Source: a virus. Taken from it: 64,000 nucleotides of DNA. Location: the IMG/VR virus record IMGVR_UViG_3300046376_000226, positions 1 through 64,000 of that record. One strand, written 5' to 3'. Each line of letters opens with the position of its first letter. The stretch's first letter is position 1. Position numbers and translations under genes: made by a program. The notes beneath the pieces were generated by a model that was not told the DNA's origin, searched no databases, and saw only the letters and a program-made list of their open reading frames with translations. This document shows positions 8,117 through 26,344 of the stretch, piece by piece.

Positions 8117-8797
8117 TTACTTCTTTTGCGGAACCCAGATCTCAACCGGCACGCCTGGACCGGCGCTCACATACAGGGTCCTGGTGTCGCCGGGTAGCAC
8201 AATCGGATGTTCCGGCGTCAGACCGTTGCCCCCGCCGCTTTCTGGCGGCAACACGATCGGATGCGCAGGCGCCACCGGGTAGTAGATCGGCTGTGTCGGT
8301 ACTCCACCGCTAGCTGGGGGTTGCTCCGGCGGCAGCTCAATCGGATGGGCTGGCGCGACCGGAATATAAATCGGATGCTCGGGGCTCGCCCCTTCTCCAG
8401 GCAGATAGATCGGATGCTCCGGTGTCGGCGGCAGGATGTAGATCGGATGCTCTGGCGCGATCGGAAAATAGATCGGATGGGTCGGTACTCCTCCACCGCT
8501 AGCTGGCGGTTGGTCTGGCGGCAAAACGATCGGATGAGCTGGGGCCACCGGAATGTAAATGGGATGTTCAGGACCAACCGGGACGCTCGGTGGTGGCAAA
8601 TAGATCGGATGCTCGGGGCTGACGTCGATATAGATCGGATGCTCGGGATGAGCCCCGCTGTCGACCGGCGGCAATACGATCGGGTGAGCTGGGAAAATGG
8701 GGATATAAATGGGTTGCTCGGGATGAGTGCCATCTGGCGGCGGCGTTGGCACCAGAATCGGGGGGACCGCAATCGTTTTAGTGACAGATAGATACAT
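8117..8797 (-). CDS. Pro-rich protein built of His-Pro-Ile-Tyr repeats
   Basis: 226 residues, nearly all composed of repeats of the type PEHPIYIP / PAHPIVLPP separated by short Gly/Ser/Pro linkers. HPI occurs more than a dozen times, about every 10-20 residues. The C-terminus (YVSAGPGVPVEIWVP) looks like a short beta structure. There is no catalytic motif. The regular aromatic-proline pattern suggests an extended rod or a surface- or lectin-type decoration. The nucleotide repeats (ATCGGATG) follow from the protein repeat. The gene ends before a strong terminator. Function unknown. Confidence 0.75.
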   Translation of the reverse strand: MYLSVTKTIAVPPILVPTPPPDGTHPEQPIYIPIFPAHPIVLPPVDSGAHPEHPIYIDVSPEHPIYLPPPSVPVGPEHPIYIPVAPAHPIVLPPDQPPASGGGVPTHPIYFPIAPEHPIYILPPTPEHPIYLPGEGASPEHPIYIPVAPAHPIELPPEQPPASGGVPTQPIYYPVAPAHPIVLPPESGGGNGLTPEHPIVLPGDTRTLYVSAGPGVPVEIWVPQKK

Positions 8798-9319: not shown

Positions 9320-9530
9320 GGTTGATTACGACCATGTGATCTGGGTTTACACACTGGGGTTCGTCACAGGTTCTGGCTAAGATTTTACCTGAAGCTATCT
9401 CCCCGCCGGATTTAAAATAGAGGTAATAAGCAGCGGCATCGGCGTCAAGCACTTCAGGTTCATCAGTGTCCAGAGCAAACTCAATATCGAGTTGTTGCTC
9501 GAAGCTAAGCAGGATCGGTGTCATTGCCAC
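9312..9530 (-). CDS. Small protein with a partial HNH-type zinc motif
   Basis: 72 residues. The C-terminus ARTCDEPQCVNPDHMVVIN matches the second half of HNH_3-type endonucleases (C-x-x-x-x-C-V-N-P-x-H-L). The preceding His-containing half of the site is missing, so it is probably a worn-down HNH gene or a protein that kept only the zinc knuckle. It overlaps the helicase stop by 10 bp. Confidence 0.55.
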   Translation of the reverse strand: MAMTPILLSFEQQLDIEFALDTDEPEVLDADAAAYYLYFKSGGEIASGKILARTCDEPQCVNPDHMVVINRE

Positions 9531-11086
9531 CTCCGCGCTTGCTCGGGGGTCAAGTCCCAGATGTCTTTTACCGCATGTTCCGCCGCAGGGCCAAGAGCCC
9601 TGATCTCAGCAAGACCTTTAAAGCGCCTACGGCCAATCGCGAGCATAACCTGGCGAGCGAGCCCTTCCGATGGCACACTTTCCGGGTCGATCCCCGCGCG
9701 CGATAAGAGCCCGCGCGTAAAGGGCGTCGGTTTACGGGTTTCCCAGGGATAGATGGGCTCGTAGTTGAATAGCGCGTGTTCGCCGGTCGACGCTGCGAAA
9801 TATTGGGCTGCGACTTTGCCTTCGCGAAACCTGGCGGTCGCTTGTAAGCGCCGCCGTATAGCCTCCTCTCGTTCGAGTTGGACTTGGCGGGCTACCGCTC
9901 GCAGGGAATAGCTCGAGCCAGCGGCTTTATGCATCTCATTGGCGAACTCTTCATCGGGAGCGATTAGGAACGAGGGGGTACAGAGATCGTGGTCCTGGGA
10001 TAGCCATAACGGATCAATGATGAAAGCTTTCGGCTTACTCGAGCCCGCGATCGCGGCCAGACGTCCTTGGACGTCCTGGATGTTGTCGATCAGCCCCGGC
10101 ACGGTCCGGGTGGATCGGCCGATGATCTGCTGGTACAAAACTTTCGACTTCGTCGGCCTCAGGTTTAGGGTTGCATCGCATACCGGCATATCCACGCCGG
10201 TATGTAGCAGGCTAGCGTTGGAAAGAAGACCGATTTTACCTTGTTTGAACAGCTCTAGCTTCTGATCGCGCTCGGGGTCTTCCCCATCGATATGGACCGC
10301 ATCGATCCCTTCGGCGCGGCAGGCTTCGACGAACTTCTGCGAGCTTGCGACCAGGGGCAGAAACGCCAGGATATGGCGCTGGGCGTGTTTTGCTTTTAGC
10401 TCCTTAGCGATCTCACGGAAATACGGTGCGATCGCATCAGCGGCATCCTGGGCGTCGTAATCGATACCCTCAGTCGAGTGTTTCACCCGGACATCGGCTA
10501 GGCTGATCGCGGTCTCCAGCCGGTCGACATGGTCCGGGTCAACCAGGTACCCGTCGTCAACCAGGGCGAACAGGTCCTTGCGGTACGCTTCAACCTGGAA
10601 AATGTCGGAAAGCTTTTTGCCGTCAGAGCGAAACGGGGTTGCCGTAATGCCGCAGCGTTTAGCGCTGGTGAAATGCTCGAAGATGCGCCTCCAGCTGGCT
10701 GCCACCGACATATGGCATTCGTCAGCGAAAATGTAAGAGAAGTGATCGCGCGGCCAGCGTTCCAGGCGTTTCTTTCTGGATAGGGTCTGGACACTTCCAA
10801 CGACTACCTGGGCGTCCAGAGGCGCGAAAGAGTCGGCTTTTTCCAGAGCAGGCACATAACCCAGTTGATCGCGGAAAGCCGCCATCGGCTGGGTACAAAG
10901 TTCGTTGCGGTTAGCAAGGAACAGGATGCGGCCAGCGCCGTTTTTTTGGACATAGGCGCTGGTCCCGGCTGCGATCAGGGTCTTGCCACCTCCGGTAGCA
11001 ACTACCGCGATACAATGCTCGCCTTTTTTCCAGGCTGCGAGGATGGCAATTGCCGCCTCGGATTGGTATGGTCGGAATACCTTCAT
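9521..11086 (-). CDS. DEAD/DEAH-box superfamily 2 helicase
   Basis: 521 residues. The Q-like motif RPYQ is at the N-terminus. Walker A is ATGGGKT at about 30-36, the DEAH-type box is ADECHMS, motif III is GITATPFR, and motif VI is QQIIGRSTRT in the second RecA domain. The set belongs to the SSL2/type I restriction helicase branch that phages use in DNA replication or repair. The C-terminal 150 residues are extra and unassigned. It sits next to the VRR-NUC and RecT genes, which supports a DNA-processing role. Confidence 0.93.
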   Translation of the reverse strand: MKVFRPYQSEAAIAILAAWKKGEHCIAVVATGGGKTLIAAGTSAYVQKNGAGRILFLANRNELCTQPMAAFRDQLGYVPALEKADSFAPLDAQVVVGSVQTLSRKKRLERWPRDHFSYIFADECHMSVAASWRRIFEHFTSAKRCGITATPFRSDGKKLSDIFQVEAYRKDLFALVDDGYLVDPDHVDRLETAISLADVRVKHSTEGIDYDAQDAADAIAPYFREIAKELKAKHAQRHILAFLPLVASSQKFVEACRAEGIDAVHIDGEDPERDQKLELFKQGKIGLLSNASLLHTGVDMPVCDATLNLRPTKSKVLYQQIIGRSTRTVPGLIDNIQDVQGRLAAIAGSSKPKAFIIDPLWLSQDHDLCTPSFLIAPDEEFANEMHKAAGSSYSLRAVARQVQLEREEAIRRRLQATARFREGKVAAQYFAASTGEHALFNYEPIYPWETRKPTPFTRGLLSRAGIDPESVPSEGLARQVMLAIGRRRFKGLAEIRALGPAAEHAVKDIWDLTPEQARRWQ

Positions 11087-11139
11087 ATACGTGCCTGTAG
11101 TATCGCACCTGCTCTTTTGAAAAGCAAGTGCGAAATCAT

Positions 11140-11212
11140 CAGGCCGGGAAGGATTCGAACCTTCAGTCGGCGGTTTTGGGGACCGCTGCTTTCCCTGTTA
11201 AGCTACCGGCCT
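11140..11212 (-). tRNA. tRNA-Trp (CCA anticodon), unusual C33
   Basis: Read on the minus strand: acceptor stem AGGCCGG paired with CCGGCCT, D-arm GCTT/AAGC, anticodon arm GCGGT-CCCCAAA-ACCGC, variable loop of 5, T-arm GAAGG-TTCGAAT-CCTTC, discriminator G, no encoded CCA. The loop gives anticodon CCA (Trp), with C instead of the nearly universal U at position 33. The fold is otherwise complete (73 nt). The 3' end of a small protein gene overlaps it. Confidence 0.85.
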
Positions 11213-11372
11213 TTCCATCTTTTCCATCTTTCTTAGCCCAGCGGGCCCGGGCCGCTTTCCGGGCTTGCGCCGGGGTCCGGCCCTTGGTGCCCTTCTTACC
11301 CATTAGCGCTGCGCCCTGGGAAATGACCCAGTTATCTTTGAGTATTTTATTGCAGTGCGGGCACCGGCTCAT
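11163..11372 (-). CDS. Small zinc-knuckle protein overlapping the tRNA
   Basis: About 69 residues from MSRCPHCNKIL, one CxxC pair followed by a very basic tail (AQARKAARARWAKK). The last 16 or so codons are also tRNA-Trp sequence. The gene may be genuine with the tRNA inserted in its 3' end, or the tail may be accidental read-through. It overlaps the next gene by 26 bp. Confidence 0.45.
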   Translation of the reverse strand: MSRCPHCNKILKDNWVISQGAALMGKKGTKGRTPAQARKAARARWAKKDGKDGKAGSLTGKAAVPKTAD

Positions 11373-11712
11373 GGGCTCCATCTCCCTCTATGGTGGCGAC
11401 CTGGGCCGCTTCTTCCTGGTCGATCGCGCCTAAATCCACGGTAAGCCCGGGCACCGGTTTAATGCTTTCCTCGAGCCCTTTCACGTCCAAAAAGAACCCG
11501 CGCCGCTCGTGGTCTTTGTTCCCGACTTCGATGCCGGTCCGTTTCCAGAACCGCACTACCGCGTAGTCTTTTACCCGGACAATCATCTGGCTATTGCGCC
11601 AGCCGATCACTTCTGCCTGGTACTCCTTCACAGAAGCCGGTTCGGGTACCCGGTCAATCCAGCGCACCGTGACCCGTAAAGCGTGGCCGATCGCGAGATC
11701 TTGATGGTTCAT
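11347..11712 (-). CDS. Hypothetical protein
   Basis: 121 residues, beta-rich (ALRVTVRWIDRVP, MIVRVKDYAVVRFW) with an acidic C-terminus. It starts with an ATGA-type overlap with the upstream gene, so it is translated with the recombination block. No family recognised. Confidence 0.6.
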   Translation of the reverse strand: MNHQDLAIGHALRVTVRWIDRVPEPASVKEYQAEVIGWRNSQMIVRVKDYAVVRFWKRTGIEVGNKDHERRGFFLDVKGLEESIKPVPGLTVDLGAIDQEEAAQVATIEGDGAHEPVPALQ

Positions 11713-12602
11713 GCTAGCGCCGCCAGCCCGATTTGCACCACCACTTTCTCGTCCAGGTAATCGATAGCCAGGTTGCCGCCCCGGGCCTCGGCCCGCTCAA
11801 TGACCTTACCGAATGGGGTGGCTGGTCCGATGGCTTGGGACTCAAAGCCCAGGGCTTTAGCAATGCTCCAGCGTTGCTCGATCAGGTAATAGGCCAGGCT
11901 CGCCACTAAATCGTCGTCTTGCTCGGCCCACTTAAGCAGGTCGCGTTCGCTGATCGGTACTCGCAGGTAACGAATGGCGTCAGCCGCCTCGTCTCCGGCC
12001 AGCCGCCGGATCCGTTCCAATGCCGCTTCGCCTTCCTCGGTAAAAGTGACCTCATCGGGTACCCGTTTCTTGCCACTGCCGGTGGCAGGCGCGGCCGCTT
12101 TTTCGCCGTTAGCGTCCCCTGAGTCCAGGTCCAGGTCGGTCTTTACCCCGGTGCGTTCCTTGGCGGCCGCTTTAGCCTGGGCGTCCTCGATCTGGTCGAC
12201 AATGGCTCGGACGCCCCGGCTGGTTAGAGGCTGGCTCCGGCGCGCCTGGGCGTCCAGGATCTGGCCCCAGACCTCAGTCTGGCGTTCGGCATCCAGGCGG
12301 CTCAGCTCGGCGGCCATACTCTCGTTATCGGGCAGCGCCAGGCCCGCTTTTTTAATGCGGTCGACGGTCAGCGAGATCCCGATGATTCGCTCGGTTGAGC
12401 GCGGCTCGAAGGGGAGTGTGGCCGTGATATAGTCAGCCCAGGCTTCGTAGCCCCGCTCTTCATAGAGCTTCTCGCTTTTGATCTTATAAAGCTCGCGCCC
12501 AATAGCGACCGTTGCGTCCTGGGTCCGTTTCAGGTTGGTGGCGATCTTCAGCTCGCATTGCTCGAGTGCCAGCAAACGTTCTTTGGAGGTAAGTTCTTTC
12601 AT
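11709..12602 (-). CDS. Hypothetical protein, helical, phage DUF3102-like N-terminus
   Basis: 297 residues. The N-terminal 120 residues (ATVAIGRELYKIKSEKLY, then GYEAWADYI and RSTERIIGIS) resemble the helical domain of ParB/DUF3102-like phage proteins that contain a helix-turn-helix. A charged linker (residues about 150-185) leads to a second helical domain. It stands directly after the RecT gene and may bind DNA. Exact role unknown. Confidence 0.6.
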   Translation of the reverse strand: MKELTSKERLLALEQCELKIATNLKRTQDATVAIGRELYKIKSEKLYEERGYEAWADYITATLPFEPRSTERIIGISLTVDRIKKAGLALPDNESMAAELSRLDAERQTEVWGQILDAQARRSQPLTSRGVRAIVDQIEDAQAKAAAKERTGVKTDLDLDSGDANGEKAAAPATGSGKKRVPDEVTFTEEGEAALERIRRLAGDEAADAIRYLRVPISERDLLKWAEQDDDLVASLAYYLIEQRWSIAKALGFESQAIGPATPFGKVIERAEARGGNLAIDYLDEKVVVQIGLAALA

Positions 12603-12614
12603 GCCCTTGGGTTC

Positions 12615-13790
12615 CTACCATGGTTTGGCTTGCTTGTGGAATGCGATCGCGGCTTCGAACATCGCATAATCGGCGCGCTGGAGATCGTTAGCCTCATCCC
12701 AGCCTTCCCGCACCTTGGGTAACCACTGGTTCTCGATTACCTGGAGTTCGGCCTGGTTCAGCTCGGAGATTTTGCGCTTGTGATACTTCACGTGCGTTAC
12801 CCCCAGGATCACATGGTCGCGCCAGGGCGGCTCCGGCGGCGCGGCAGGCGGGCTCATATCCAGCTCGTTGTCATCGGGGCTTGGCCCCATCCGTTTCTCG
12901 GCTTTCTGCGGCTCAACTGTTTGCGGCTTAGGCGGCTCTACGGGTTTAGGGGGCAGCTCATGGACAGTAGCCGGTTGAGCTGCTTCTTCTGGGGTAGGCA
13001 ACGGTTTCTCGGGTTGTAACGTGGTCATGTTAGGCGGCAGAGGCGCTTTAGCCAGCTCCGCTTCGCGTTCCCGGTTACGCCGGATCTTTTCCTCGTCCAG
13101 CCCTAAGGTCTCGGTGTCCGTCTCAGCGTCGGTGATGTTACTGTCCAGTTCTTCCCGGATATAGATGTTGGACAACTGGTCAGGGAAGGCACCGCGCAGC
13201 GCTGCTGCTTTGGCGCATTTGCCCAGCATATAGTCGTCCATCTTGGACCAGAACTCTGAGACCTCCCATTGCTTCTTTTCCTGGTTCCAGCTCTGCCCGA
13301 CGTAAGCGTGCCAGCGGGCGATCCCGATCTCGGGGTGCGCCCGGTGCCGGTGATGGACGATTGCTCGAGCGGCGGCAGGCGCGTTCTCGAATAGCCATTC
13401 GGTCAGCCATTTAACTTCGCCGGTCCCTTCCTCCGGAGGACCCGCCCAGGCGATCTCGCACCCGTTGTAGTCGCCGGTCCGGGTGGCTACGGCCGTCAGG
13501 CCCATGATGCCGGTGACGATCACCAGCGTAGGCACCTTTTTCGTATTACCGTTCTCGTCGCGCACCTTTTGATAACGTCGGGTGGCATAGATCTGTTTAG
13601 TAAACGGATCCAATTTGGTACGCTGACAGACGCGGATAAAACTCTCAGCCTCGTCCTCGGGGAACTTGGCGAGCATCGTTCTTTTCAGTAACTCGACCTC
13701 TTCTTTGGACAGGAAATCGGGCATCGGGGAGAACTGTGGGGTGTAGGTTTGGGCTATAGGATAGGATTGCTCCTGTGGGGCGAGATTCAT
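12615..13790 (-). CDS. recT: RecT/Bet family single-strand annealing protein
   Basis: 391 residues. Diagnostic stretches are RTKLDPFTKQIYA near residue 60, GIMGLTAVATRTGDYNGCE near 95-115, and the KCAKAAALRGAFPDQLSNIY motif near 205-225, as in Red-beta/RecT. These proteins anneal complementary strands during phage recombination and replication. The C-terminal 150 residues are a Pro/Glu-rich linker followed by a small helical domain, longer than in Red-beta. The stop overlaps nothing, but the start overlaps the coiled-coil gene upstream by 4 bp. No obvious RecE-type exonuclease is adjacent. Confidence 0.92.
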   Translation of the reverse strand: MNLAPQEQSYPIAQTYTPQFSPMPDFLSKEEVELLKRTMLAKFPEDEAESFIRVCQRTKLDPFTKQIYATRRYQKVRDENGNTKKVPTLVIVTGIMGLTAVATRTGDYNGCEIAWAGPPEEGTGEVKWLTEWLFENAPAAARAIVHHRHRAHPEIGIARWHAYVGQSWNQEKKQWEVSEFWSKMDDYMLGKCAKAAALRGAFPDQLSNIYIREELDSNITDAETDTETLGLDEEKIRRNREREAELAKAPLPPNMTTLQPEKPLPTPEEAAQPATVHELPPKPVEPPKPQTVEPQKAEKRMGPSPDDNELDMSPPAAPPEPPWRDHVILGVTHVKYHKRKISELNQAELQVIENQWLPKVREGWDEANDLQRADYAMFEAAIAFHKQAKPW

Positions 13791-14620
13791 AAGAGACCTT
13801 TGGCGTTAGCTTTCACTGATACATTGATAGAGCGTTTGACCTGGATCCCGGGCAGGGAGGGCGTGCAGTTGGGATCGATCGCTAATTGAGCCCGGACACT
13901 ATCCTGGCAAGCCTGGATATTCAGTTCCCAGCGCAGGAGCCCCAGGCACCCGGCTCGGACAGTTTCGCCCAAGTTAAGCAGCTTAAACTCGAAAGGATGA
14001 TCTACCCGGCCGGACGGCACCAGGCCCCGCCTAGGTTGATCCGCGCCGAGGTTAGCGACTTCCATGGCCATCTCTTTGGCTAGTTGCTCCTGGGCTGCGA
14101 CTAACATCTGGGCCTGGGCCTCGGCCTGCGCTTTAATTCGAGCCGCTTCATCTAAAGCCGCCCGGGCTTTCTCCTCGGCTGCTTCCTGGGCAGCCAGAGC
14201 CGCGCGAATTTTAGCGTCATGGGCTTCTCGTTCCCGGGCCAGAGCCTCGGCGTGTTTGCGATCTTGCTCTTTCTGGCGCGCCTCCAGCTCGGCTACGTAA
14301 GCATTCAGGAGCCCCAGGATCCGTTTGTGCTCGGCGCCGACAGAGTCACCGATCAGTCGCGCCTGTTCGTTGATTTGCTCATTAATGCTTTTAAACGGTT
14401 CCTGGGCTCCCTTACGGCCTTTGTCGATTTCGTTCAGGAACGCTTTGAGCTGGCCCGCCAGCTGTTGGGCCGTGGCGAAACTGGCGCTGTCAAAGACCGA
14501 CACAAACCCAGAGGTGCGATTTAGGAGTGCGTCAGCCCGCTTCTGATCCTTGGGGTTTACCCGGACCTGGACACTCTGGACGACAAGGGGTTGATCCCCA
14601 TAGTACGGAGTCAATTCCAT
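13787..14620 (-). CDS. Coiled-coil protein partnered with RecT
   Basis: 277 residues. A long coiled coil spans about residues 60-185 (repeated Ala/Glu/Lys heptads such as EEKARAALDEAARIKAQAEA). It is followed by a compact C-terminal domain. Proteins of this layout are common next to phage recT genes and may support the annealase. The ATGA-type junction with recT implies coupled translation. Confidence 0.7.
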   Translation of the reverse strand: MELTPYYGDQPLVVQSVQVRVNPKDQKRADALLNRTSGFVSVFDSASFATAQQLAGQLKAFLNEIDKGRKGAQEPFKSINEQINEQARLIGDSVGAEHKRILGLLNAYVAELEARQKEQDRKHAEALAREREAHDAKIRAALAAQEAAEEKARAALDEAARIKAQAEAQAQMLVAAQEQLAKEMAMEVANLGADQPRRGLVPSGRVDHPFEFKLLNLGETVRAGCLGLLRWELNIQACQDSVRAQLAIDPNCTPSLPGIQVKRSINVSVKANAKGLL

Positions 14621-14629
14621 GCGTGTCCC

Positions 14630-14980
14630 TTAGGTAGTTGGCACCGAGTCGGCTTGTAAACGTTGGAACGTTTCCCAATAGTCTTCAACGGCTTGTTCCA
14701 GGACCTCGGCCTGGGCAATAATGTCCTCACGCATTGCCGGGAAATATTCATCCAGATGCGCGCGCGCATGTTTCGCCGCGCGCAAAAGTATCGTGCGCAA
14801 CCCGGCGGCCTGAGTGAAACGGAAGTAGCGACACTCCATCACCGGAGTGCATGAACTTAAGCCTCCTACCCCTTTAATGTGATCTGCCAGGGGGGCGATA
14901 GCTCTGCGCAGCGCCGCGATTTCCTCGGGCGCATGCCGGTAAAAAATGTGCGCGTCGATGATCCTATTTTGCACGTCCAT
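14630..14980 (-). CDS. Hypothetical helical protein
   Basis: 116 residues, mostly helical, with HAPEEIAALRRAIAPLADHI near the start. No family recognised. It heads the recT operon and a 217-bp non-coding stretch precedes it that holds two AAAGCATGCTTT palindromes and a TIGR-like unit. Confidence 0.6.
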   Translation of the reverse strand: MDVQNRIIDAHIFYRHAPEEIAALRRAIAPLADHIKGVGGLSSCTPVMECRYFRFTQAAGLRTILLRAAKHARAHLDEYFPAMREDIIAQAEVLEQAVEDYWETFQRLQADSVPTT

Positions 14981-15025
14981 CTCCTTAGGATCAATCGTAG
15001 CATGATGGGCTTAGCATGCGCAACG

Positions 15026-15037
15026 AAAGCATGCTTT
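15026..15037. repeat. AAAGCATGCTTT palindrome
   Basis: A 12-bp perfect palindrome between genes, next to a half copy of the other dispersed element (TGCGCAACG at 15017-15025). Other copies are at 8845, 8943, 15180 and 16691. In four of the five the palindrome continues into extra T residues. It could be a regulator-binding site or a weak terminator. Confidence 0.65.
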
Positions 15038-15087
15038 AAGGTTAGCTTTTTTCTAAGCGCGCCAAGGCTAGTTGTGCGAAAGACTTA

Positions 15088-15169
15088 CCCAGAGCCAGAG
15101 TCAACGAGAAACCCGTATCCTGAGAGCGAGCCATCCTGGTTGAAGAGACCCATGAACGCTGAGCGTTAG
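15088..15169 (+). repeat. Possible solitary TIGR-like unit, opposite orientation
   Basis: On the plus strand GAGAAACCC (15106-15114) and GAGCGAGCC (15124-15132) are exactly 18 bp apart start to start. GAGCGAGCC is identical to the reverse complement of the conserved repeat in the big array. A GAGACCC (15145-15151) and a degraded GAGCGTTAG (15161-15169) continue the pattern at the right spacing, and a partial GAGCC precedes it. The variable 9-mers are GTATCCTGA, ATCCTGGTT and ATGAACGCT. This could be a relic or an outlying unit of the array. Confidence 0.45.
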
Positions 15170-15179
15170 CTTTTGGAGT

Positions 15180-15191
15180 AAAGCATGCTTT
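15180..15191. repeat. AAAGCATGCTTT palindrome
   Basis: Copy of the 12-bp palindrome followed by three further T, lying just downstream of the stop of the minus-strand HNH gene at 15198. Confidence 0.65.
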
Positions 15192-15197
15192 TTTGGA

Positions 15198-15461
15198 CTA
15201 AGCCAGGTACCCGTTAGCTCGAGCCCAGGCCGGTGAATCATGTATCCGGCGGTGACAATCGGTGCAGACCGCGATCCAGTCCCCGGTCCGGTTGAGCTGG
15301 GCTCCGATCCGGCCCGCGCGATGATGGATCTGGGTGGAGCGTCGCGCGTCGCATAGCTCGCACCGGGGATGGCTAGCCAGATGCCCTTGCCGCTCTTTTG
15401 CGTACAGGCGAAGCGCCCTGGCGCGCTTGGGACTAACGTGCCGGAGGGGGACGCGTTTCAC
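15198..15461 (-). CDS. Small HNH nuclease
   Basis: 87 residues from a GTG start that overlaps the upstream stop as GTGA. The HNH site is complete: CELCDARRSTQIHHRAGR, then WIAVCTDCHRRIH with a second CxxC that binds zinc. It is the compact type seen in phage recombination blocks and near terminases. A homing or Holliday-junction/nicking role are both possible. Confidence 0.85.
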   Translation of the reverse strand: MKRVPLRHVSPKRARALRLYAKERQGHLASHPRCELCDARRSTQIHHRAGRIGAQLNRTGDWIAVCTDCHRRIHDSPAWARANGYLA

Positions 15462-15577
15462 TTCCGGAAGAGGCCGATATCCGGGTCAAACAGGATCCCC
15501 CAGATCCCGATCGCGATGGCCAAAAAGCCTATCCCTGCCAGGCACAACTCGGCGGCATTATTCGGTAATGGAATCAT
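15458..15577 (-). CDS. 39-residue membrane peptide
   Basis: Small reading frame beginning MIPLPNNAAELCLAGIGFLA, with one membrane helix over about residues 11-30, ending PDIGLFRK. Its stop overlaps the HNH start (GTGA). Coupled translation makes it likely to be real. Function unknown. Confidence 0.5.
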   Translation of the reverse strand: MIPLPNNAAELCLAGIGFLAIAIGIWGILFDPDIGLFRK

Positions 15578-15791
15578 AAGCCTGAGAGTACTTGGCCGCT
15601 AGATGCATGGCTAATTCTAAAGTGAGCCGGGCCCCAGTTTCAGCAAGCCCACTATACTGGGTCATTCCTTCGTCATCCAGGTCCGGGTTGAGTTGTTGGT
15701 GGCGCAGCTGGCTTAGGTGATGGCGGGTCACCTCCGGCGCAACCGCTATCATGAAGTCCCTGACTAGTTCCAGTTGCTTGGTCGTCTCCAT
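15558..15791 (-). CDS. Hypothetical helical protein
   Basis: 77 residues from METTKQLELVRDFMIAVAPE, entirely helical. The longer upstream extension overlaps the preceding gene and is not favoured. It overlaps the membrane-peptide gene by 20 bp. Function unknown. Confidence 0.5.
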   Translation of the reverse strand: METTKQLELVRDFMIAVAPEVTRHHLSQLRHQQLNPDLDDEGMTQYSGLAETGARLTLELAMHLAAKYSQAYDSITE

Positions 15792-16125
15792 AGACAGGGC
15801 GAGGCATGGGCTCGTCGAGAGGTTCCCATAACGTAGCGTAGGGTTCAGGGCTAACATCAATCGGCGGGAAAAATTGGCAAACCCAGGCTTGGTCATCGAA
15901 GAAAAGGTCCCGTGCCTGCCGCAGGATATGGTGCCCCGGAGGCGTCGCCGTCAAATTAGCTGAAGTGTGCCGGACTAGAAGCCTGCGCCAGCCCTCGGAG
16001 TCCGAGAGAGTTATCCACCAGATGTCGCCAGAAATGGGCACTAGGAAGTGTCCATTCCAGCCATCCACCTCTGAGCCCCCGCGCCGCCAGCGGTTAGCTC
16101 TGATTAGCTTTTCGAGCAGGGTCAC
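15673..16125 (-). CDS. DUF7694-like phage protein
   Basis: 150 residues. The core WWITLSDSEGWRRLLVRHTS, then ARDLFFDDQAWVCQFFPP and ATLWEPLDEPMPRP resembles a small domain of unknown function found in many phages (aromatic-rich, ending in a Leu-Trp-x-Pro motif). The last 35 residues are low complexity and overlap the following gene by 119 bp, so the natural end may be debated. Confidence 0.6.
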   Translation of the reverse strand: MTLLEKLIRANRWRRGGSEVDGWNGHFLVPISGDIWWITLSDSEGWRRLLVRHTSANLTATPPGHHILRQARDLFFDDQAWVCQFFPPIDVSPEPYATLWEPLDEPMPRPVYGDDQATGTSQGLHDSGCAGGDPPSPKPAAPPTTQPGPG

Positions 16126-16550
16126 TTTCTGGGCTTTACCTTTTGAATAACCTCTTTGACTGCCTTGCGTTCCGCAGGCATTAGCGCGGCCAGGTGCCGC
16201 GCCCGCCGCGCCGCCCTGGCCTCGGCCCTGGCTGCTGCCCGAGTCGCCGGATCTCCGGCTACCCCGAGCGGGTCCACATAGAGGCTGGGATCAGGTCGTT
16301 CCTCCAGAGTTTCCAGGGCTAGGAATTCTGCCCGAGTCGGCACCGGATACCGGTCCAAATGTTTTTGCAGGAACTCCCCTATATAGATACTGTCCGCACC
16401 TTCGCGCAGTCGCTTGATAGTGTCTTTTTTGAGACTGCAAGTGACATAGCCCCAGGCATCTTTATCCGGTTTGCCCTTCCTGCCTGCCCCCAGGCGTGAG
16501 CCGCCTCTCCCGTTTTTCCGTTTCTTGATCATTTTTAATTTTTTGGCCAT
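16122..16550 (-). CDS. Basic AT-hook-like DNA-binding protein
   Basis: 142 residues. The N-terminus is strongly basic with NGRGGSRLGAGRKGKP, the GGxRxGAGRK motif common in phage DNA-binding proteins, and the C-terminus is an Ala/Arg helix. Start overlaps the upstream frame by about 90 bp. Likely a small DNA-binding or regulatory protein. Confidence 0.6.
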   Translation of the reverse strand: MAKKLKMIKKRKNGRGGSRLGAGRKGKPDKDAWGYVTCSLKKDTIKRLREGADSIYIGEFLQKHLDRYPVPTRAEFLALETLEERPDPSLYVDPLGVAGDPATRAAARAEARAARRARHLAALMPAERKAVKEVIQKVKPRK

Positions 16551-16710
16551 AAAAGATCCGATAATAAAATGTTCGTAATGCCGCTGGGTCAGTAATCGTG
16601 CCTTCCTTGCGGTTGGCTAGACGATAGCTGATTCCGCTGGAGCGTGCCTCTCTAACCGTCGAAAGCGCGCGCCAGTCTAGCATTTGGATGAAAGCATGCT
16701 TTTTTCCCAC
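16462..16710 (-). CDS. Hypothetical basic protein
   Basis: 82 residues starting MGKKHAFIQMLDW; the KKHAF codons are the AAAGCATGCTTT palindrome. SYRLANRKEGTITDPAALRTF suggests a small winged fold. The 3' end overlaps the AT-hook-like gene by about 90 bp in another frame, so one of the two may be shorter than drawn. Confidence 0.5.
   Translation of the reverse strand: MGKKHAFIQMLDWRALSTVREARSSGISYRLANRKEGTITDPAALRTFYYRIFYGQKIKNDQETEKRERRLTPGGRQEGQTG
16691..16702. repeat. AAAGCATGCTTT palindrome at a gene start
   Basis: The fifth copy. It lies inside codons 3-6 of the gene that starts at 16710 and is followed by TTTT on the plus strand. A binding site here would repress by blocking transcription or early elongation. 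Confidence 0.6.
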
Positions 16711-16917
16711 TTATCTTAGATTATTAAAAAAGGGTATGGTTGTGATCTGGTAGTTTCCCACTGGATGGGTTTCAATCCAGGTCCGGGCCGCTAGTTCGCT
16801 CGAAAAGCCGAGCATGGCGAAATAGACGCCAGGGAAAGTGGGACTTTCCCTTTCCACCAGGTAGACGGTCTGGCAGACCGTCGCGATATCGTAGTTGAGC
16901 AGTGAATCAGTTTTCAT
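16711..16917 (-). CDS. Hypothetical small protein
   Basis: 68 residues, alpha/beta (TVCQTVYLVERE, VYFAMLGFSSELAARTWIET). It is the first gene after the Nop-like gene and has a promoter-like element about 190 bp upstream, leaving a long structured leader. No family recognised. Confidence 0.6.
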   Translation of the reverse strand: MKTDSLLNYDIATVCQTVYLVERESPTFPGVYFAMLGFSSELAARTWIETHPVGNYQITTIPFFNNLR

Positions 16918-16925
16918 TTTAGGAA

Positions 16926-16972
16926 AGTCCCGAGCAGGGTTCCCACCTGCGTCTCCCGGCGTCAGCCGGACT
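16926..16972 (-). ncRNA. Three-way-junction or tRNA-like RNA in a 5' leader
   Basis: On the minus strand AGTCC (16972-16968) pairs with GGACT (16930-16926). Between them are a short GGC-TGAC-GCC hairpin and a 5-bp stem GCAGG/CCTGC with a 7-nt loop. The loop and stem sizes resemble tRNA arms, but no acceptor or D-arm fits. It sits directly before the start codon of 16711-16917. It may be a cis-regulatory RNA or a decayed tRNA. Confidence 0.3.
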
Positions 16973-17108
16973 ATTTTACGCTTTATCCCAGTCTCCGGTC
17001 GAAGGCTCCCAAGATTCTCTATTCTGCGTAGCTACTGCATTTCGATACGTCTCAGTGTTGCAACGTGCCTCGAGTCGGTGACCGGCTCAAAACTATCGGA
17101 ACGCCACT

Positions 17109-17146
17109 AGCCTAAGGCCGGACATTTGAATTGTCAAGGGCTAATC
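17109..17146 (-). promoter_or_regulatory. Promoter-like module 1
   Basis: Minus strand: TTGATTAGCCC, then TTGACA (17137-17132), a 17-bp spacer starting ATTCAAA, and TAGGCT at -10. TTGACA is the perfect -35 consensus. The element's TGA is also the stop codon of the Nop-like gene. Five relatives lie between 22.2 and 26.9 kb. Here the next ATG is 190 bp away, unlike the others. Confidence 0.55.
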
Positions 17147-17960
17147 AATTAGGAGGGGGAATGATGCCGTCATGTCCCAGAACCTGCCCTACGTAAGGTC
17201 CTCTCACCGGCAGGCCGCGCGCCTTCCTACCCTCTCCCCAGTAGTGGACCAGGAAAATTTTGACGGCGCGGCGGCGCGCCTTGTTGTCGATGTGAGCGTC
17301 AGAGAGCTTACCCTCCAGTAGCCTGGTTTTCGTAACCGTGTCGTCCCGCCAGTTCTTGGTTGCGAGCAGCTCGGCCGCCGCTTTTTTGTAGTGGCCGGAC
17401 TCATTGCGCCGGATCTCCTCGGCCTTGAACTCCCGATACAAGCCGCCGTAAAAACATTCCTCCTGCCCCGAAAATTTGACAAACGAATCGCCAATTTTCC
17501 AGCAGAGGGTCTTCAGCCGGGAGTTGTATTGCAGTTTCTCGCCTTTGATCCGGCGATCGAAGCCGGGAGCCAAGCCCGCAAACTTCCAGAGCGCCGATGG
17601 ACTGTTCGCTTTGCTAATGTCGATATGCGCGGCTAAGCCAGCTGCTAGGACCGGGCCGATACCGTACTGAGAGTAAGCCCAGCGGGATTCTACCGGCGCA
17701 TCGCTCTCTACCCATTTCTGCAACTTAGCCTGGATAAGCGCCTCGCCAAAATGCAAGTACTCAAAGAACCAGGCATCGAGATCCCGTGGCTCTTCCGTTC
17801 GTTTTTTGGCGGCATGCCGTTTCCGGTGCTCCTGACAGTCGTAATATAGTTCGACGATTCGGGCCACACTTGAGGCTTCGATTTCGTAGGCTTTTACAAT
17901 CTCATTGATTAGGTCATTGCGCGCTAGTTTGACTAGTTCCTTGTGTTGTTCTTTTTTCAT
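17145..17960 (-). CDS. Nop-domain TIGR-associated (Tas-like) protein, nuclease-free
   Basis: 271 residues. Residues 98-160 match the C-terminal domain of IS110/IS116/IS902 transposases: YGIGPVLAAGLAAHID at 99-114, WKFAGLAPG at 125-133, then LQYNSRLKTLCWKIGDSF. That domain is related to the Nop domain of box C/D snoRNP proteins and of Tas proteins. The N-terminal 95 residues are helical, charged and probably coiled. The IS110 DEDD/RuvC-like nuclease domain is absent and no HNH motif is present, so it corresponds to the nuclease-free Tas form. The ATG lies inside a degenerate copy of the array repeat, so array and gene touch. Expected role: bind 36-nt guide RNAs from the array and find DNA. The alternative of a truncated IS110 transposase is less likely because of the array. 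Confidence 0.85.
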   Translation of the reverse strand: MKKEQHKELVKLARNDLINEIVKAYEIEASSVARIVELYYDCQEHRKRHAAKKRTEEPRDLDAWFFEYLHFGEALIQAKLQKWVESDAPVESRWAYSQYGIGPVLAAGLAAHIDISKANSPSALWKFAGLAPGFDRRIKGEKLQYNSRLKTLCWKIGDSFVKFSGQEECFYGGLYREFKAEEIRRNESGHYKKAAAELLATKNWRDDTVTKTRLLEGKLSDAHIDNKARRRAVKIFLVHYWGEGRKARGLPVRGPYVGQVLGHDGIIPPPN

Positions 17961-20171
17961 TCGCTCTTTCGCTATGGGTGTCTCTGTTTCGCTGGCTCGC
18001 TCATTCCGTATTGGGTGTCTCTTTCTTTTTGGCTCGCTCCTATGCTATGGGCGTCTCGGTTTCGCTGGCTCGCTAATTCATGATGGGTGCCTCTATCTTT
18101 TTGGCTCGCTAATTTGTTATGGGCGTCTCGTATCTACTGACTCGCTCATTCGCTGTGGGTGCCTCGTTCTTATTGGCTCGCTTCCGCTCCTGGGGCGTCT
18201 CTGGATTCGCGGCTCGCTCGTTTACGGTGGATGTTTTTTGGTATGTGGCTCGCTCCATTGAAGTGGCTGACGCTCTTCCAACATGACTCGCTCACGGCTT
18301 TCGGATGTCTCGCGAACAATGACTCGCTCCATTGAACTGGTTGTCTCTTTCATCATGGCTCGCTCGTACGCTCTGGATATCTCTCTTTTAGCGGCTCGCT
18401 CATTTTCGATGGGTGGCTCAGCTGCTCTGACTCGCTCGCGTATCGTGGATGGCTCGTGGGCAGCGGCTCGCTCGCACTCTCTGGTTGTCTTGTGGTTCAG
18501 GGCTCGCTCGCTGCTGATGGGTGTCTCATATGGTGTGGCTCGCTCGCGGCCCTTGGTCGTCTCATTAATTTTGGCTCGCTCTTTTGTGGTGAGTGTTTTT
18601 CCTTTTGCATGGCTCGCTCGTTCATCACGGTTATCTCTCGTAGAGTGGCTCGCTCCTGTCTGTTGGGTGCCTCTTAAACCTTGGCTACTGCATTCCTCCG
18701 CTTGCGATGTATGGGGTTCTCTATCCGTTCGACTCGCTCCTCGTCTTTTGGATATCTCGTCAGGGCTGGCTCGCTCTCACCTTTTGGGGCTCTTCATCGA
18801 CAATGGCTCGTTCCCCGGCTTTGGGTGTCTTTTACGGATTGACTCGCTCATCTTTAAGGTTGTGACTCAATGGTCATGGCTCGCTTCTTATTTCTTGGGT
18901 GTCTCTTGCCAGTTGGCTCGCTCCTAGAATATGTGGCTCTGTTCGGTTCCCTTGGCTCGCTCTCATGCGATGGGGTTCTCTCACCATACGGCTCGCTATT
19001 CCGTCTCTGGGCGTCTCCGGTATTGTGGCTCGCTATTGTCCAATGGGCGTCTTATGGATTCTGGCTCGCTTCTCATTGCTGGTTGTCTCGTATTGCTCGG
19101 CTCGCTCCAACTTAATGGGTGCCTCATCTGCTTGGCTCGCTCTCTTCGCGCGGTTATCTACAATCGCATGGCTCGCTCATCCGCGATGGGTTGCTCTTTC
19201 TGAATGGCTCGCTCCCATGCCTTGGGTATCTCACTTTGCTTGGCTCGCTCTTGCGTTATGGGTTGCTCGTCATGGATGGCTCGCTCATTCATTTTGGGAC
19301 TCTCTTTTGCCATGGCTCGCTCTTTACATCGGTGGGATAGCTCTTCTGATTTGACTCGCTCGTTCTGGTTGGATGGCTCATCAGGGTTGGCTCGCTCTTC
19401 CGTCTCAGGGTTTCTGTTTTCTCATGACTCGCTCTATTTGAATGGGTGCCTCTACAACCGTGACTCGCTCGCCTATTATGGGGTGACGTCCTCTTGATTG
19501 ACTCGCTCTCTCACTTTGGGTTTCTTGCTTGGCGCGGCTCGCTTAAGCTCTATGGGTTTCTCCTTGGTGTTGGCTCGCTCATTGTGCTTGGATGGCTACC
19601 GAATCAAGGCTCGCTTTCTTTTCTTGGATATCTCTCGATTAATGACTCGCTCCTCTCAATTGGGTGACTCTTCGAGAATGGCTCGCTAGTTTATCCTGGG
19701 GTTGCTCTTCTTGTAGTGGCTCGCTTTGTTTTCGCGTGGATGATTCACCTTCTGTGGCTCGCTCTTCATTTATGGGGTTCTCACGCAGGCTGGCTCGCTC
19801 GCACATGTTGGGTATGGGTAATCTCGCGTAGTCCGGCTCGCTCCAATGATTTGGGGTTCTCTATCGCTCTGGCTCGCTCCCGCTCTGTGGATGGCTCGTT
19901 ACCTATTGGCTCGCTTGTGATTCATGGGCGTCTTGCACCATTTGGCTAGCTCCTTTCGAATGGGCTCCTCAAGTTTCATGGCTCGCTTGTATATTGTGGG
20001 ATTACTCCGAGGGCTTGGCTCGCTTTACAGACGTGGGTTGCTCCGGGTTCCTGGCTCGCTCGTGACATATGGGCGTCTCGTACCTATTGGCTCGCTCGTT
20101 TATCCTGGGTTGCTCCTAATTGATGGCTCCGCTCGTTCGGCGACGGTTGTCTTTTGGGGCTCGGCTCGCTC
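17958..20171. repeat. TIGR array: 60 units with dual 9-nt spacers
   Basis: On the plus strand each unit reads GGCTCGCTC, variable 9, GGGTGTCTC-like, variable 9. I counted 61 copies of the first repeat (starts 17958, 17994, 18031, 18067 ... 20125, 20163) and thus 60 units; 40 are exactly 36 bp, the rest 35-48 (48 at 18683, 43 at 19792). GGCTCGCTC is nearly invariant (GACTCGCTC in 11 copies; last base sometimes T or A). The second repeat varies more (GGGCGTCTC, GGGTTGCTC, GGATGGCTC) but keeps GG at the start and mostly CTC at the end. Spacers are almost all different. This matches published TIGR arrays (edge repeat, spacer A, loop repeat, spacer B; 36-nt tigRNAs). The transcribed strand is not settled: minus would run into the Tas-like gene. 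It is not CRISPR: repeats are 9 bp and no cas genes exist. Confidence 0.93.
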
Positions 20172-20407
20172 TCCGAAAACTTCGTAGAGCTTGCCGCCAA
20201 AAGACAGGTCATTTTGATTGGTTTGGACCCAATCATATTCTCTGATAATTACCATAAAAAATGCCCTTTTCGACCCCCGCTTTAAACGCACCAGGTTGAC
20301 CGCAGGCGCGTCGCAAGGCCGAGCAGGTGCATTGGACCTGTGCGCAACGTTGCGCATCCTGGGGCATCCTCGAGCGTTTGTGGGCCATAGCCAAATGATG
20401 ACATGTG
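20172..20407 (-). promoter_or_regulatory. Array-distal flank, candidate leader
   Basis: A 236-bp stretch beyond the last repeat and before the next gene. It holds an AT-rich segment (20215-20265), the palindrome at 20341-20356, and a short minus-strand frame from ATG 20255 (MVIIREYDWVQTNQNDLSFG...) that runs on into the first two array units as ERAEP repeats before stopping. If the array is read on the minus strand, its promoter must be here. No convincing -35/-10 pair was found. The short frame may be the remnant of a gene. Confidence 0.4.
20341..20356. repeat. 16-bp perfect palindrome of the dispersed element
   Basis: TGCGCAACGTTGCGCA, the left half of the dispersed intergenic element, here without the GGCGCGCC-centred part. 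It lies in the array-distal flank. Confidence 0.75.
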
Positions 20408-20515
20408 TCAGGGTTTGCGCCTGGTTAAGTACTCCGAAAGCGCGATCAGCGTGAAGTACAAGATGATCGCCAAGGCACCACTCAAGAACCCTAGAAGGAA
20501 AGTGGTTACATCCAT
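20408..20515 (-). CDS. 35-residue membrane peptide
   Basis: Frame beginning MDVTTFLLGFLSGALAIILY, one membrane helix (about residues 5-27) followed by a short charged tail (SEYLTRRKP). It follows the upstream gene by 2 bp, so it is probably cotranslated. It is the last gene before the array flank. Function unknown. Confidence 0.45.
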   Translation of the reverse strand: MDVTTFLLGFLSGALAIILYFTLIALSEYLTRRKP

Positions 20516-20517
20516 AC

Positions 20518-20745
20518 CTATTGGACTAGCAGGTTCCGGATAATGACTCCAGCGCAGTCGCGCGCTGAGACGTGGGTGCCAGCCGGTGCGTTATCCTGGA
20601 GCGTCTGCCGCCAGTCCTCTGCCATGACGGCCGACAGCAGTGCCTGACCCTCTGAGCCCTTGGTCCAGGCGCTTGCTATCTGGATGATATAATGCCGGAC
20701 CCGTTCCCAGTACCGGGCATCGCGGTCGTAAACAGTCGCTTTCAT
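20518..20745 (-). CDS. Hypothetical small protein
   Basis: 75 residues from MKATVYDRDARYWERV; the start is fixed by an ATGA overlap with the upstream gene. Helical, with no recognised family. Last of a run of overlapping small genes that starts at 22279. Confidence 0.6.
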   Translation of the reverse strand: MKATVYDRDARYWERVRHYIIQIASAWTKGSEGQALLSAVMAEDWRQTLQDNAPAGTHVSARDCAGVIIRNLLVQ

Positions 20746-20960
20746 TTTGCCGCCTCGCACCATTTGTCAATGACCCGTTGGGCGGCTGCTATGGCCTGCC
20801 CGAGGCTTTCATAGTAGCCAGTGGTCTGGCCATCGGCGTGAGCCATCCAGGTGAGCACTCCCTGACTATAATAGGAGTGGATGCCGATCTCGTGCTGCCG
20901 GTATTCGATTACGTGATCGTATCGGACCAGCCGGTCGTTAAGTCTAAATGCGTACCTCAT
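20742..20960 (-). CDS. Hypothetical small protein
   Basis: 72 residues from MRYAFRLNDRLVRYDHVIEY; ATGA overlap with the preceding stop selects this start. Beta-rich first half with a helical tail (LGQAIAAAQRVIDKWCEAAK), a layout shared by several small proteins in this region (compare 25125-25343). Confidence 0.6.
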   Translation of the reverse strand: MRYAFRLNDRLVRYDHVIEYRQHEIGIHSYYSQGVLTWMAHADGQTTGYYESLGQAIAAAQRVIDKWCEAAK

Positions 20961-21169
20961 AGTGGAATCCATTTACCCTGGACTAAGCGAGCGGCGGCTT
21001 TGATGTCGCCGTAGCCTTTGCGCGAATCATACGTCCGGACTTCGCCGCCGTTAGCCAGGCGGACGCCAATGGTGCTCCCTTTGACGAAGATCACCTCGGC
21101 GGGAGTATTGTTGCCTCCCTTACCGGTGACTAGAACGTAGTCACCGGCTCGTAGCGTGCTCACTTTCAT
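20957..21169 (-). CDS. Hypothetical small beta-rich protein
   Basis: 70 residues from MKVSTLRAGDYVLVTGKGGN, probably a small SH3-like barrel (AGDYVLVTG, PAEVIFVKGSTIGVRL). ATGA overlap with the upstream stop. Function unknown. Confidence 0.6.
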   Translation of the reverse strand: MKVSTLRAGDYVLVTGKGGNNTPAEVIFVKGSTIGVRLANGGEVRTYDSRKGYGDIKAAARLVQGKWIPL

Positions 21170-21510: not shown

Positions 21511-21821
21511 AGCTCACCTCCGTTGCGGCTGCGCCAGTACTCCATCACGTACTCACGCAGTGCCTGCTTAGTGGGTAAGCCGCCCAGTCCTTTATTGGCA
21601 ACGGTATCCCTGCTGACAGACCATTGGTCCTCGGACTTGAGGTCCGCATAGAACAAGCCTCCCTGCTCGTACCAGTAGCCAAGCGGATGGTAATCACCTC
21701 CGTTTGTCAGTTTGGTGCTATCACCGGTCAAGCGAGGTCGACCCGGTCCGTCGCTACCGCAGGCCACTACCAGTCCACTTTTCCTCAGTACCACGCGCCG
21801 TTTGCCATACATCATGCTCAT
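21507..21821 (-). CDS. Hypothetical protein
   Basis: 104 residues, basic N-terminus (YGKRRVVLRKSGLVV), Gly-rich loops and an acidic helix near the C-terminus. Overlaps neighbours as ATGA. No family recognised. Confidence 0.55.
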   Translation of the reverse strand: MSMMYGKRRVVLRKSGLVVACGSDGPGRPRLTGDSTKLTNGGDYHPLGYWYEQGGLFYADLKSEDQWSVSRDTVANKGLGGLPTKQALREYVMEYWRSRNGGEL

Positions 21822-25349: not shown

Positions 25350-25388
25350 AGCTTAAGGCCAGGCGTTTGAATGTCAAGGGCTAATCAA
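25350..25388 (-). promoter_or_regulatory. Promoter-like module 5
   Basis: Minus strand: TTTGATTAGCCC, TTGACA (25377-25372), 16-bp spacer, TAAGCT, ATG 6 bp later. The module's TGA ends the PP-loop enzyme gene. Confidence 0.55.
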
Positions 25389-26344
25389 ATGGGGCCGCAA
25401 CTTTCCCCAAAGGCACCAGCTGGCCGGACCCAAGTTGCGAGCCTGATTGAGCCTGACCAGTTGACATCGTTGGCCTCGGCTACCAGGGCGGGATCTCGCG
25501 TCGCGGCATAAGCAACGCCCAGGGCGGCTTTCTGGCATACCGTTTTACCCTGGCGATCAATGGTCTTACCGAATTCGGCTTCATAGGCTGCGATCCGGTT
25601 AAACTGGCCCGGAGCTACGGCCCGGGCACTGGCCCATTGGTTAGAGTTCCCGAAAATGCAGGTTAAGCAGGACAAACGGCCCCAGCCCAGCCGATAGGCT
25701 GGATGCATATTGATGCGGTGCCGCTCGATGATTGCCCAGACCTGGTCCTCAGTCCATTTGTGGACTGGGCGCAGCCGGTCAACGTGGCGGCTCTGGCAAT
25801 TGGTCCGGTCCGGCTCAAACTCAGCGTAGCGGGCCCGAGCGGCAGACTCCTGGGCGCGTTCGCCGCTGATGACCAGTGTGCGTTTGCCTTTGAAACGCGG
25901 CTGGTTAGCCAGGGCGCTGTCGCACACATCAATCTTGAGTTTAGCTGAGCACCAGCGCTTGGAGAGATCAGGCGTAACCTGGGGAAACAGACGGCGCGTA
26001 TTTAATGGCCCGGTTGTTCCACCGGCACTCTTGATGCCGTCCGGAGTCTCGAAAATGCTCGGTGCGGTGCGCGTGTTCTGGCGCAGCATCTCGCGAGCGA
26101 AGCCGCCCTCACGCCAAGAGAAGTAAATCTTGACGCCAAAGGCGCGAGCAAAAGCTTGGCAATAGGCCCGAGTACTGGGCCAGTCCATCAGGTGCTCAGC
26201 GTCCTCTCTGCCATCAATATCATGATGCCAGAGTTCAATCTTGGACAGCTCAACCCCCGCTTCCACTAGGGCAAGGAAAGAGGCAATGGAATCTTTGCCC
26301 CCGCTAAAGGCGACAACGTAGTAATCGTAATCGAGAGGAATCAT
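25385..26344 (-). CDS. PAPS reductase-like PP-loop ATP pyrophosphatase
   Basis: 319 residues. The PP-loop SGGKDS is at 14-19. RWCSAKLKID near 130 and SCLTCIFGNSNQW near 225 contribute cysteines of the type seen in PAPS reductase and DndC-like enzymes. VISGERAQES fits the second nucleotide motif. Members activate substrates with ATP and use Cys or Fe-S chemistry in sulfate reduction, DNA phosphorothioation (DndC) or RNA modification. No dndA/B/D/E partners are in the window, so a phosphorothioation role is not shown. It stands in the small-gene region between promoter-like modules 5 and 6. Confidence 0.88.
   Translation of the reverse strand: MIPLDYDYYVVAFSGGKDSIASFLALVEAGVELSKIELWHHDIDGREDAEHLMDWPSTRAYCQAFARAFGVKIYFSWREGGFAREMLRQNTRTAPSIFETPDGIKSAGGTTGPLNTRRLFPQVTPDLSKRWCSAKLKIDVCDSALANQPRFKGKRTLVISGERAQESAARARYAEFEPDRTNCQSRHVDRLRPVHKWTEDQVWAIIERHRINMHPAYRLGWGRLSCLTCIFGNSNQWASARAVAPGQFNRIAAYEAEFGKTIDRQGKTVCQKAALGVAYAATRDPALVAEANDVNWSGSIRLATWVRPAGAFGESCGPI

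What the first reader, a model, noticed from the sequence alone, without database searches (positions are those of the whole stretch)
17145..20171. TIGR-Tas-like locus: Nop-domain protein next to a 60-unit dual-spacer array
Seen in the sequence: 60 units of about 36 bp (40 are exactly 36), each with two conserved 9-mers and two variable 9-mers placed 18 bp apart. The array touches a 271-residue protein that keeps the IS110-type C-terminal (Nop-like) domain without any nuclease domain. Known: TIGR-Tas systems have tandem interspaced guide RNA arrays processed into 36-nt tigRNAs with two spacers, and Tas proteins with a Nop domain with or without RuvC or HNH. Inference: this is a phage TIGR system with a nuclease-free effector, acting as a guided DNA binder (silencing, replication or competitor control). 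An array of 60 units (about 120 spacers) looks large.
Basis: partly seen in the sequence, partly recalled or inferred. Interest (0 to 1): 0.97.

Follow-up and report, generated by a model that had tools for sequence, protein, structure and literature searches.

The report
Phage TIGR-TasA locus with large array
This phage carries a known kind of RNA-guided DNA-binding system (TIGR-Tas, published 2025) in its nuclease-free form, with one of the larger guide arrays in the sample I looked at; related arrays appear to avoid matching their own phage's genome, which points to foreign DNA as the target.

Summary
The minus strand at 17961-20171 carries about 60 units: edge repeat GAGCGAGCCA, 8-nt spacer A, loop repeat GAGACACCCA, 8-nt spacer B (10+8, not 9+9). 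It lies directly upstream of, and on the same strand as, a 271-aa protein. That protein is a Tas protein: it passes the curated cut-off of NCBIfam NF052498 (TIGR-Tas), matches solved TasH and TasR by sequence and predicted fold, and has no nuclease domain, so it is a TasA. The system is already known; this is a new member. Sixty units is large (median 13 in 103 related phage records) but not a record (96 and 65 elsewhere). Added here: (1) tas gene and array are co-oriented in 83 of 83 loci with both; (2) a sister phage keeps an orthologous tasA in the same gene order, but its array lies downstream and shares no spacer; (3) the own genome holds no target, and across 1,715 spacer pairs near-perfect self-matches in the functional geometry are absent (0 seen, 6.7 expected); (4) the array's truncated last edge repeat abuts the tasA start codon, an arrangement that recurs. 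Best reading: tigRNA-guided binding of foreign DNA without cutting. Natural targets remain unidentified.

The parts
17145..17960 (-). tasA: 271-aa solo Nop-domain TIGR-associated protein. Residues about 29-86 form two long helices (coiled-coil dimerisation arm, by analogy with TasR); residues about 90-265 match the Nop/IS110 C-terminal domain. No HNH or RuvC domain.
17961..20171 (-). TIGR array, about 60 units: edge repeat GAGCGAGCCA (10 nt), spacer A (8 nt), loop repeat GAGACACCCA (10 nt), spacer B (8 nt)
17961..17966 (-). 3'-truncated last edge repeat GAGCGA, directly abutting the tasA ATG at 17958-17960
   Evidence: similar GAGCG placed 6-9 nt before the start codon in other upstream-array loci
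18656..18739 (-). 84-nt interval holding one regular and one degenerate unit (irregular part of the array)
19801..19879 (-). 79-nt interval with an irregular second unit
20098..20171 (-). first (5'-most) two units, degenerate
9521..16125 (-). neighbouring genes (DEAD/ResIII helicase 9521-11086, RecT 12615-13790, HNH-like ORF 15198-15461 and others), collinear with the sister phage record G001, which carries tasA at the same place

Best explanation
A phage-encoded TIGR-TasA system. The array and tasA lie on one strand with no terminator found between them, so they are probably co-transcribed, the array forming a 2.2-kb leader of the tasA message (inferred). The transcript is cut within the edge repeats into 36-nt tigRNAs, each with two 8-nt guides. 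A TasA dimer holds one tigRNA by its box C (CCA) and box D-like ends, and the two guides pair with opposite strands of a roughly 16-bp target (shown for TasR and TasH, inferred here by homology). Lacking a nuclease, the complex binds and bends rather than cuts, blocking transcription, replication or partition of DNA that is not the phage's own: competing mobile elements or, less likely, the host. The truncated edge repeat fused to the tasA start codon would make tigRNA binding or processing compete with translation of TasA, a built-in feedback (inferred).
For: Tas identity. No nuclease fold. Array architecture as in PMC12045711, and the same edge repeat in over 100 IMG/VR stretches. Across arrays, edge and loop repeats agree at their box ends: 72 of 75 arrays at repeat position 10 and 74 of 75 at position 2, as expected if a symmetric dimer reads both. 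Tas gene and neighbouring array co-oriented in every locus with both, 83 of 83. No target in the window's own 74.5-kb genome or the sister phage. In 103 records and 1,715 spacer pairs, self-matches with at most one mismatch in the functional geometry (A then reverse-complement B, gap 0-2): 0 against 6.7 expected, P about 0.0012; at gaps 3-8 and in three wrong geometries, counts are near or above expectation. GAGCG-type motif close before the tas start in 9 of 28 upstream-array loci against 4 of 52 others, P 0.009.
Against: No foreign target was identified: matches to other TIGR phages do not rise above controls. Expression, processing and DNA binding are not shown for this locus. The self-avoidance signal rests on 6.7 expected hits, and self-matches with exactly two mismatches are only slightly depleted (117 against 136). 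The host is unknown, so host targets could not be tested. The published TasR did not block phage or conjugation in E. coli (PMC12045711).
Confidence: 0.72

Rival explanations
1. TIGR-TasA used as a regulator of the phage's own genes (self-binding to repress or bend its own DNA, or aid its integrase).
For: TasA lacks a nuclease, and PMC12045711 raises gene regulation and help to integrases as possibilities.
Against: Best own-genome matches have 2-4 mismatches of 16, the same as shuffled spacer pairings; pooled near-perfect self-matches are absent where 6.7 are expected.
Confidence: 0.08
2. TIGR-TasA aimed at the host chromosome, silencing host genes (for example defence genes) during infection.
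For: Spacers are generally lower in GC than the phage (0.44 against 0.56 in the window), and pooled spacers show depletion of CTAG and TTAG typical of bacterial coding DNA. Nothing found contradicts host targets.
Against: No host is known and no host target was tested; the same k-mer signature would also fit phage or plasmid genes.
Confidence: 0.2
3. An IS110-family transposon remnant with an unrelated tandem repeat.
For: Weak Pfam Transposase_20 match (18.8 bits, below the 21.3 cut-off); PHROG 4285 is labelled transposase.
Against: No DEDD catalytic domain, NF033542 far below cut-off (18.3 against 140), Tas profile far above, arrays co-occurring with tas in over 80 loci.
Confidence: 0.01
4. 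A decaying, non-functional array, swollen by slippage.
For: Some units are irregular (35-39 nt, three degenerate intervals), a few spacers are near-duplicates (10 pairs against 4.1 expected but within the shuffle range), and array content differs completely from the sister phage.
Against: Box ends are kept in most units, tasA is intact and conserved, irregular units are scattered rather than concentrated (rho 0.006), and related arrays carry the same edge repeat.
Confidence: 0.06

Closest known systems
TIGR-TasA systems (solo Nop domain; Faure et al. 2025, PMC12045711)
   Same: Nuclease-free Nop protein, dual-repeat array of about 36-nt units, phage setting, array beside the gene on the same strand
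   Different: Array of about 60 units (published: most often 5-15), lying upstream and ending in a truncated edge repeat at the tasA start codon
SpTIGR-TasH of Salicola phage CGphi29 (HQ634153; PDB 21kl, 9w04 and others)
   Same: Closest characterised relative by sequence (34% identity over residues 100-269); 8-nt spacers and nearly the same repeats (edge AAGCGAGCCA, loop AAGACAACCA)
   Different: TasH carries an N-terminal HNH nuclease that the window protein lacks; its array of about 8 units is downstream and ends in a terminator-like stretch
TaTIGR-TasR (PDB 9mty)
   Same: Nop domain and dual-spacer guide
   Different: TasR has a RuvC nuclease and 9-nt spacers
IS110/IS621 bridge-RNA recombinases
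   Same: Related C-terminal RNA-binding domain (Foldseek probability 1.00 but E 0.03-0.2; profile E 2e-7)
   Different: No DEDD catalytic domain here, and an array instead of a single bridge RNA

Membership tests
TIGR-Tas | Tas protein with Nop domain | tested here: met
   NF052498, 152 bits against cut-off 100; phmmer and profile matches to TasH and TasR; fold match
TIGR-Tas | Array of two alternating 8-12-nt repeats separated by short spacers of about 9 nt | tested here: met
   10-nt edge and loop repeats, 8-nt spacers; SpTIGR also has 16 nt of spacer per unit (PMC12045711)
TIGR-Tas | Box C/D-like ends shared between edge and loop repeats | tested here: met
   Both repeats begin GA(G) and end CCA; the ends agree between edge and loop in 72 of 75 and 74 of 75 arrays
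TIGR-Tas | Array adjacent to tas gene | tested here: met
   Array ends at the tasA start codon; in 83 of 83 loci with both, array and gene are on the same strand
TIGR-Tas | Array processed into 36-nt tigRNAs bound by Tas | not testable with these tools
   Needs small-RNA sequencing or pull-down
TIGR-Tas | tigRNA-guided DNA binding with the two spacers on opposite strands | not testable with these tools
   Biochemistry needed; the self-avoidance test in this geometry is indirect support
TIGR-TasA subtype | Solo Nop domain, no HNH or RuvC | tested here: met
   271 aa, all-helical model; no nuclease-domain family match in Pfam, NCBIfam or PHROGs (the NCBIfam name says endonuclease, but the 215-position model aligns to the Nop region)
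IS110 transposon | N-terminal DEDD catalytic domain | tested here: not met
   NF033542 18.3 bits against cut-off 140, matching only its C-terminal half
CRISPR-Cas | Repeats of about 25-36 nt with spacers of similar size, and cas genes | tested here: not met
   10-nt alternating repeats; no Cas family among TasA and nine nearby proteins in PADLOC

The most novel reading that the evidence does not exclude
TIGR arrays placed upstream of tasA are at once guide precursor and control element: the last truncated edge repeat overlaps the ribosome-binding region, so TasA bound to, or helping to process, its own array shuts off its own translation, while selection against self-matching spacers keeps the nuclease-free complex aimed at foreign DNA.
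Probability: 0.3. Interest if true: 0.6.

Novelty: new member of a known kind. Interest (0 to 1): 0.42.

Why it matters
The role and natural targets of nuclease-free TasA systems are open (PMC12045711). This locus supplies a large array of 8-nt-spacer guides, an orthologous sister system with complete spacer turnover at the same locus, and a start-codon arrangement that can be tested in E. coli. The pooled self-avoidance result, if it holds in larger sets, would be sequence evidence that TIGR arrays act on foreign DNA.

Tried and rejected
Own-genome targets: none above shuffles. Sister-phage targets in both directions: none. Targets in other TIGR phages (3.4-Mb pool): exact hits 17 against about 8.6 at gaps 0-2, but a like excess at non-functional gaps 3-4, so a composition effect of the shuffle and not a signal (an earlier smaller test, looked weakly positive). 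Enriched spacer motifs: only a general coding-DNA signature. Position-dependent decay of the array: none. Rfam over 16000-21000: no match. Sigma-70 promoter and terminator scan of 16500-21000: near chance. Fold of the stretch downstream of tasA: not more stable than shuffles. Terminase relatives in annotated phages: none, so no host inference. The genome-collection scan gave mostly chance or coding-repeat hits; within those loci a Tas homologue was found only in L171, L181 and L196, and L213's genome also has one. L084 was dropped as a simple repeat. Host-genome targeting was not tested: no host is known, and the genome tools take one pattern per search.

Full report
1. The observation. The window belongs to a 74,555-bp virus record. 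ORF 17145-17960 (-) encodes 271 aa. On the minus strand, from 20171 down to 17961, the sequence GAGCGAGCC recurs at array spacing, which never happens in shuffles. Parsing gives 57 anchored edge repeats plus one extra degenerate unit in each of three long intervals, about 60 units; 36 intervals are exactly 36 nt. Per-position information content gives a 10-nt edge repeat GAGCGAGCCA, an 8-nt spacer, a 10-nt loop repeat GAGACACCCA whose middle four bases vary, and an 8-nt spacer.

2. The protein. Pfam sees only a sub-threshold IS110 C-terminal match, and PHROGs files it with 'transposase'. NCBIfam, however, has a TIGR-Tas model (NF052498), which it passes at 152 bits against a cut-off of 100, while IS110 (NF033542) is far below its cut-off. 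The closest solved proteins by sequence are TasH and TasR; a family profile adds IS621 and ISCro4 weakly. An AlphaFold2 model built on 42 relatives (mean pLDDT 91, pTM 0.88, all helices) matches TasH and TasR complexes best (E down to 4e-9), then IS110-type recombinases with high Foldseek probability but weak E-values. There is no HNH or RuvC domain. It is a TasA in the sense of Faure et al. 2025 (PMC12045711). The NCBI name 'endonuclease' does not fit this member.

3. The array in context. An iterated profile finds 86 Tas proteins among these loci and earlier ones; 83 of them have an array in the same locus (20 upstream, 50 downstream, 13 both), and in every one the array is on the coding strand. 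Some records carry further arrays far from tas, and a few of those lie on the other strand. Repeat ends agree between edge and loop repeats in nearly every array, as the symmetric Tas dimer model predicts. Counting units in 103 records gives a median of 13; the window ranks third by the strict count (54), behind records with 96 and 65 units. Many records are fragments, so counts are lower bounds. The window's array is large, not unique.

4. Sister phage. Record G001 (68 kb) has a terminase 73% identical to the window's and keeps tasA (about 59% identity) in the same gene order after the helicase and RecT genes. Its array of about 30 units lies downstream of tasA, the loop repeat differs, and no spacer is shared. 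The gene is orthologous; the guide content and the array's side have turned over completely.

5. Targets. TasR pairs spacer A with one strand and spacer B with the other, tolerating 0-2 bp between them (PMC12045711). In that geometry the window's spacers have no target in its own genome beyond chance and none in the sister phage. Pooling 1,715 unique spacer pairs from 103 records, each tested against its own record with within-record pairing controls, I find 0 self-matches with at most one mismatch at gaps 0-2, where 6.7 are expected (P about 0.0012). At gaps 3-8 the counts are 10 seen against about 12 expected, and three wrong geometries at gaps 0-2 give 9, 5 and 8 against about 6 each. The geometry was fixed in advance from the paper, but the expected count is small and exact two-mismatch hits are only mildly depleted (117 against 136), so I call it suggestive. 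Cross-matches among TIGR phages do not exceed controls once non-functional gaps are considered. Spacers are usually lower in GC than their phage and, pooled, show the CTAG/TTAG depletion of bacterial coding DNA. Both fit host or mobile-element genes and do not decide between them.

6. The start codon. The window's array ends ...TAGCGAAA-GAGCGA-ATG: a truncated edge repeat touching the tasA start. Among 28 tas genes with an array close upstream, 9 have a GAGCG-like motif 5-12 nt before the start against 4 of 52 others (P 0.009); with a stricter 6-9 nt window, 8 against 2 (P 0.003). In four of these (L072, L102, L117, L123) the last spacer base plus GAG makes a GGAG Shine-Dalgarno-like site. Other upstream loci have a separate SD instead, so it is a recurring option, not a rule. 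I chose this comparison after seeing the window, so the P values are descriptive. If tigRNA maturation cuts or covers the last edge repeat, it would limit TasA translation. The paper does not mention this in the sections read.

7. Conclusion. Known system, new member, unusually large array; mechanism most likely guide-directed binding of foreign DNA without cleavage. Shown: protein family, fold, array anatomy, orientation rule, absence of self-targets. Inferred: transcription as one unit, processing to 36-nt RNAs, DNA binding and bending, foreign targets, feedback on tasA.

Noticed in passing
window 54873-57390 (-): A TfuA-like gene (PF07812) next to a YcaO cyclodehydratase (PF02624) within the phage's structural-gene region; such pairs thioamidate peptide backbones elsewhere (own knowledge), and a phage copy looks unusual.
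   Followed up: partly
window 25385-26344 (-): PAPS-reductase-like gene in the phage.
   Followed up: no
window 8117-8797 (-): 226-aa protein made of repeated P-E-H-P-I-Y-like segments.
   Followed up: no
L329, L330 (record G030) and L286, L287 (record G016): Phage records with 96 and 65 TIGR units spread over several arrays, larger than the window's.
   Followed up: partly
L295 and L296 (record G018), L268 and L269 (record G010), L390-L395 (record G048): Extra arrays far from tas, some on the opposite strand, so a single tas gene may serve arrays in several transcription units.
   Followed up: no
L171, L196, L213, L218: Dual-repeat TIGR-like arrays in bacterial metagenome-assembled genomes. 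L171 and L196 have a Tas homologue in the same locus; L213's genome has one; none was found for L218.
   Followed up: partly
L003 (Microcystis phage Mvi-JY20), 4474-4780: TIGR array of about eight units beside a 241-aa Tas-like protein annotated as hypothetical; an isolated phage with a known host, useful for target search.
   Followed up: partly
NCBIfam NF052498 and phrog_4285: The names 'RNA-guided endonuclease' and 'transposase' are misleading for nuclease-free TasA members.
   Followed up: no
L258 (record G001), units starting at 21519 and 21593 in record coordinates: Two units of the sister phage array share the same spacer A (cttggaaagc) with different spacer B, as if one half were copied or reused.
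   Followed up: no
window 17109-17137 (-): TTGACA-17-TAGGCT promoter-like stretch just downstream of tasA, read by eye; the promoter scan did not list it.
   Followed up: no
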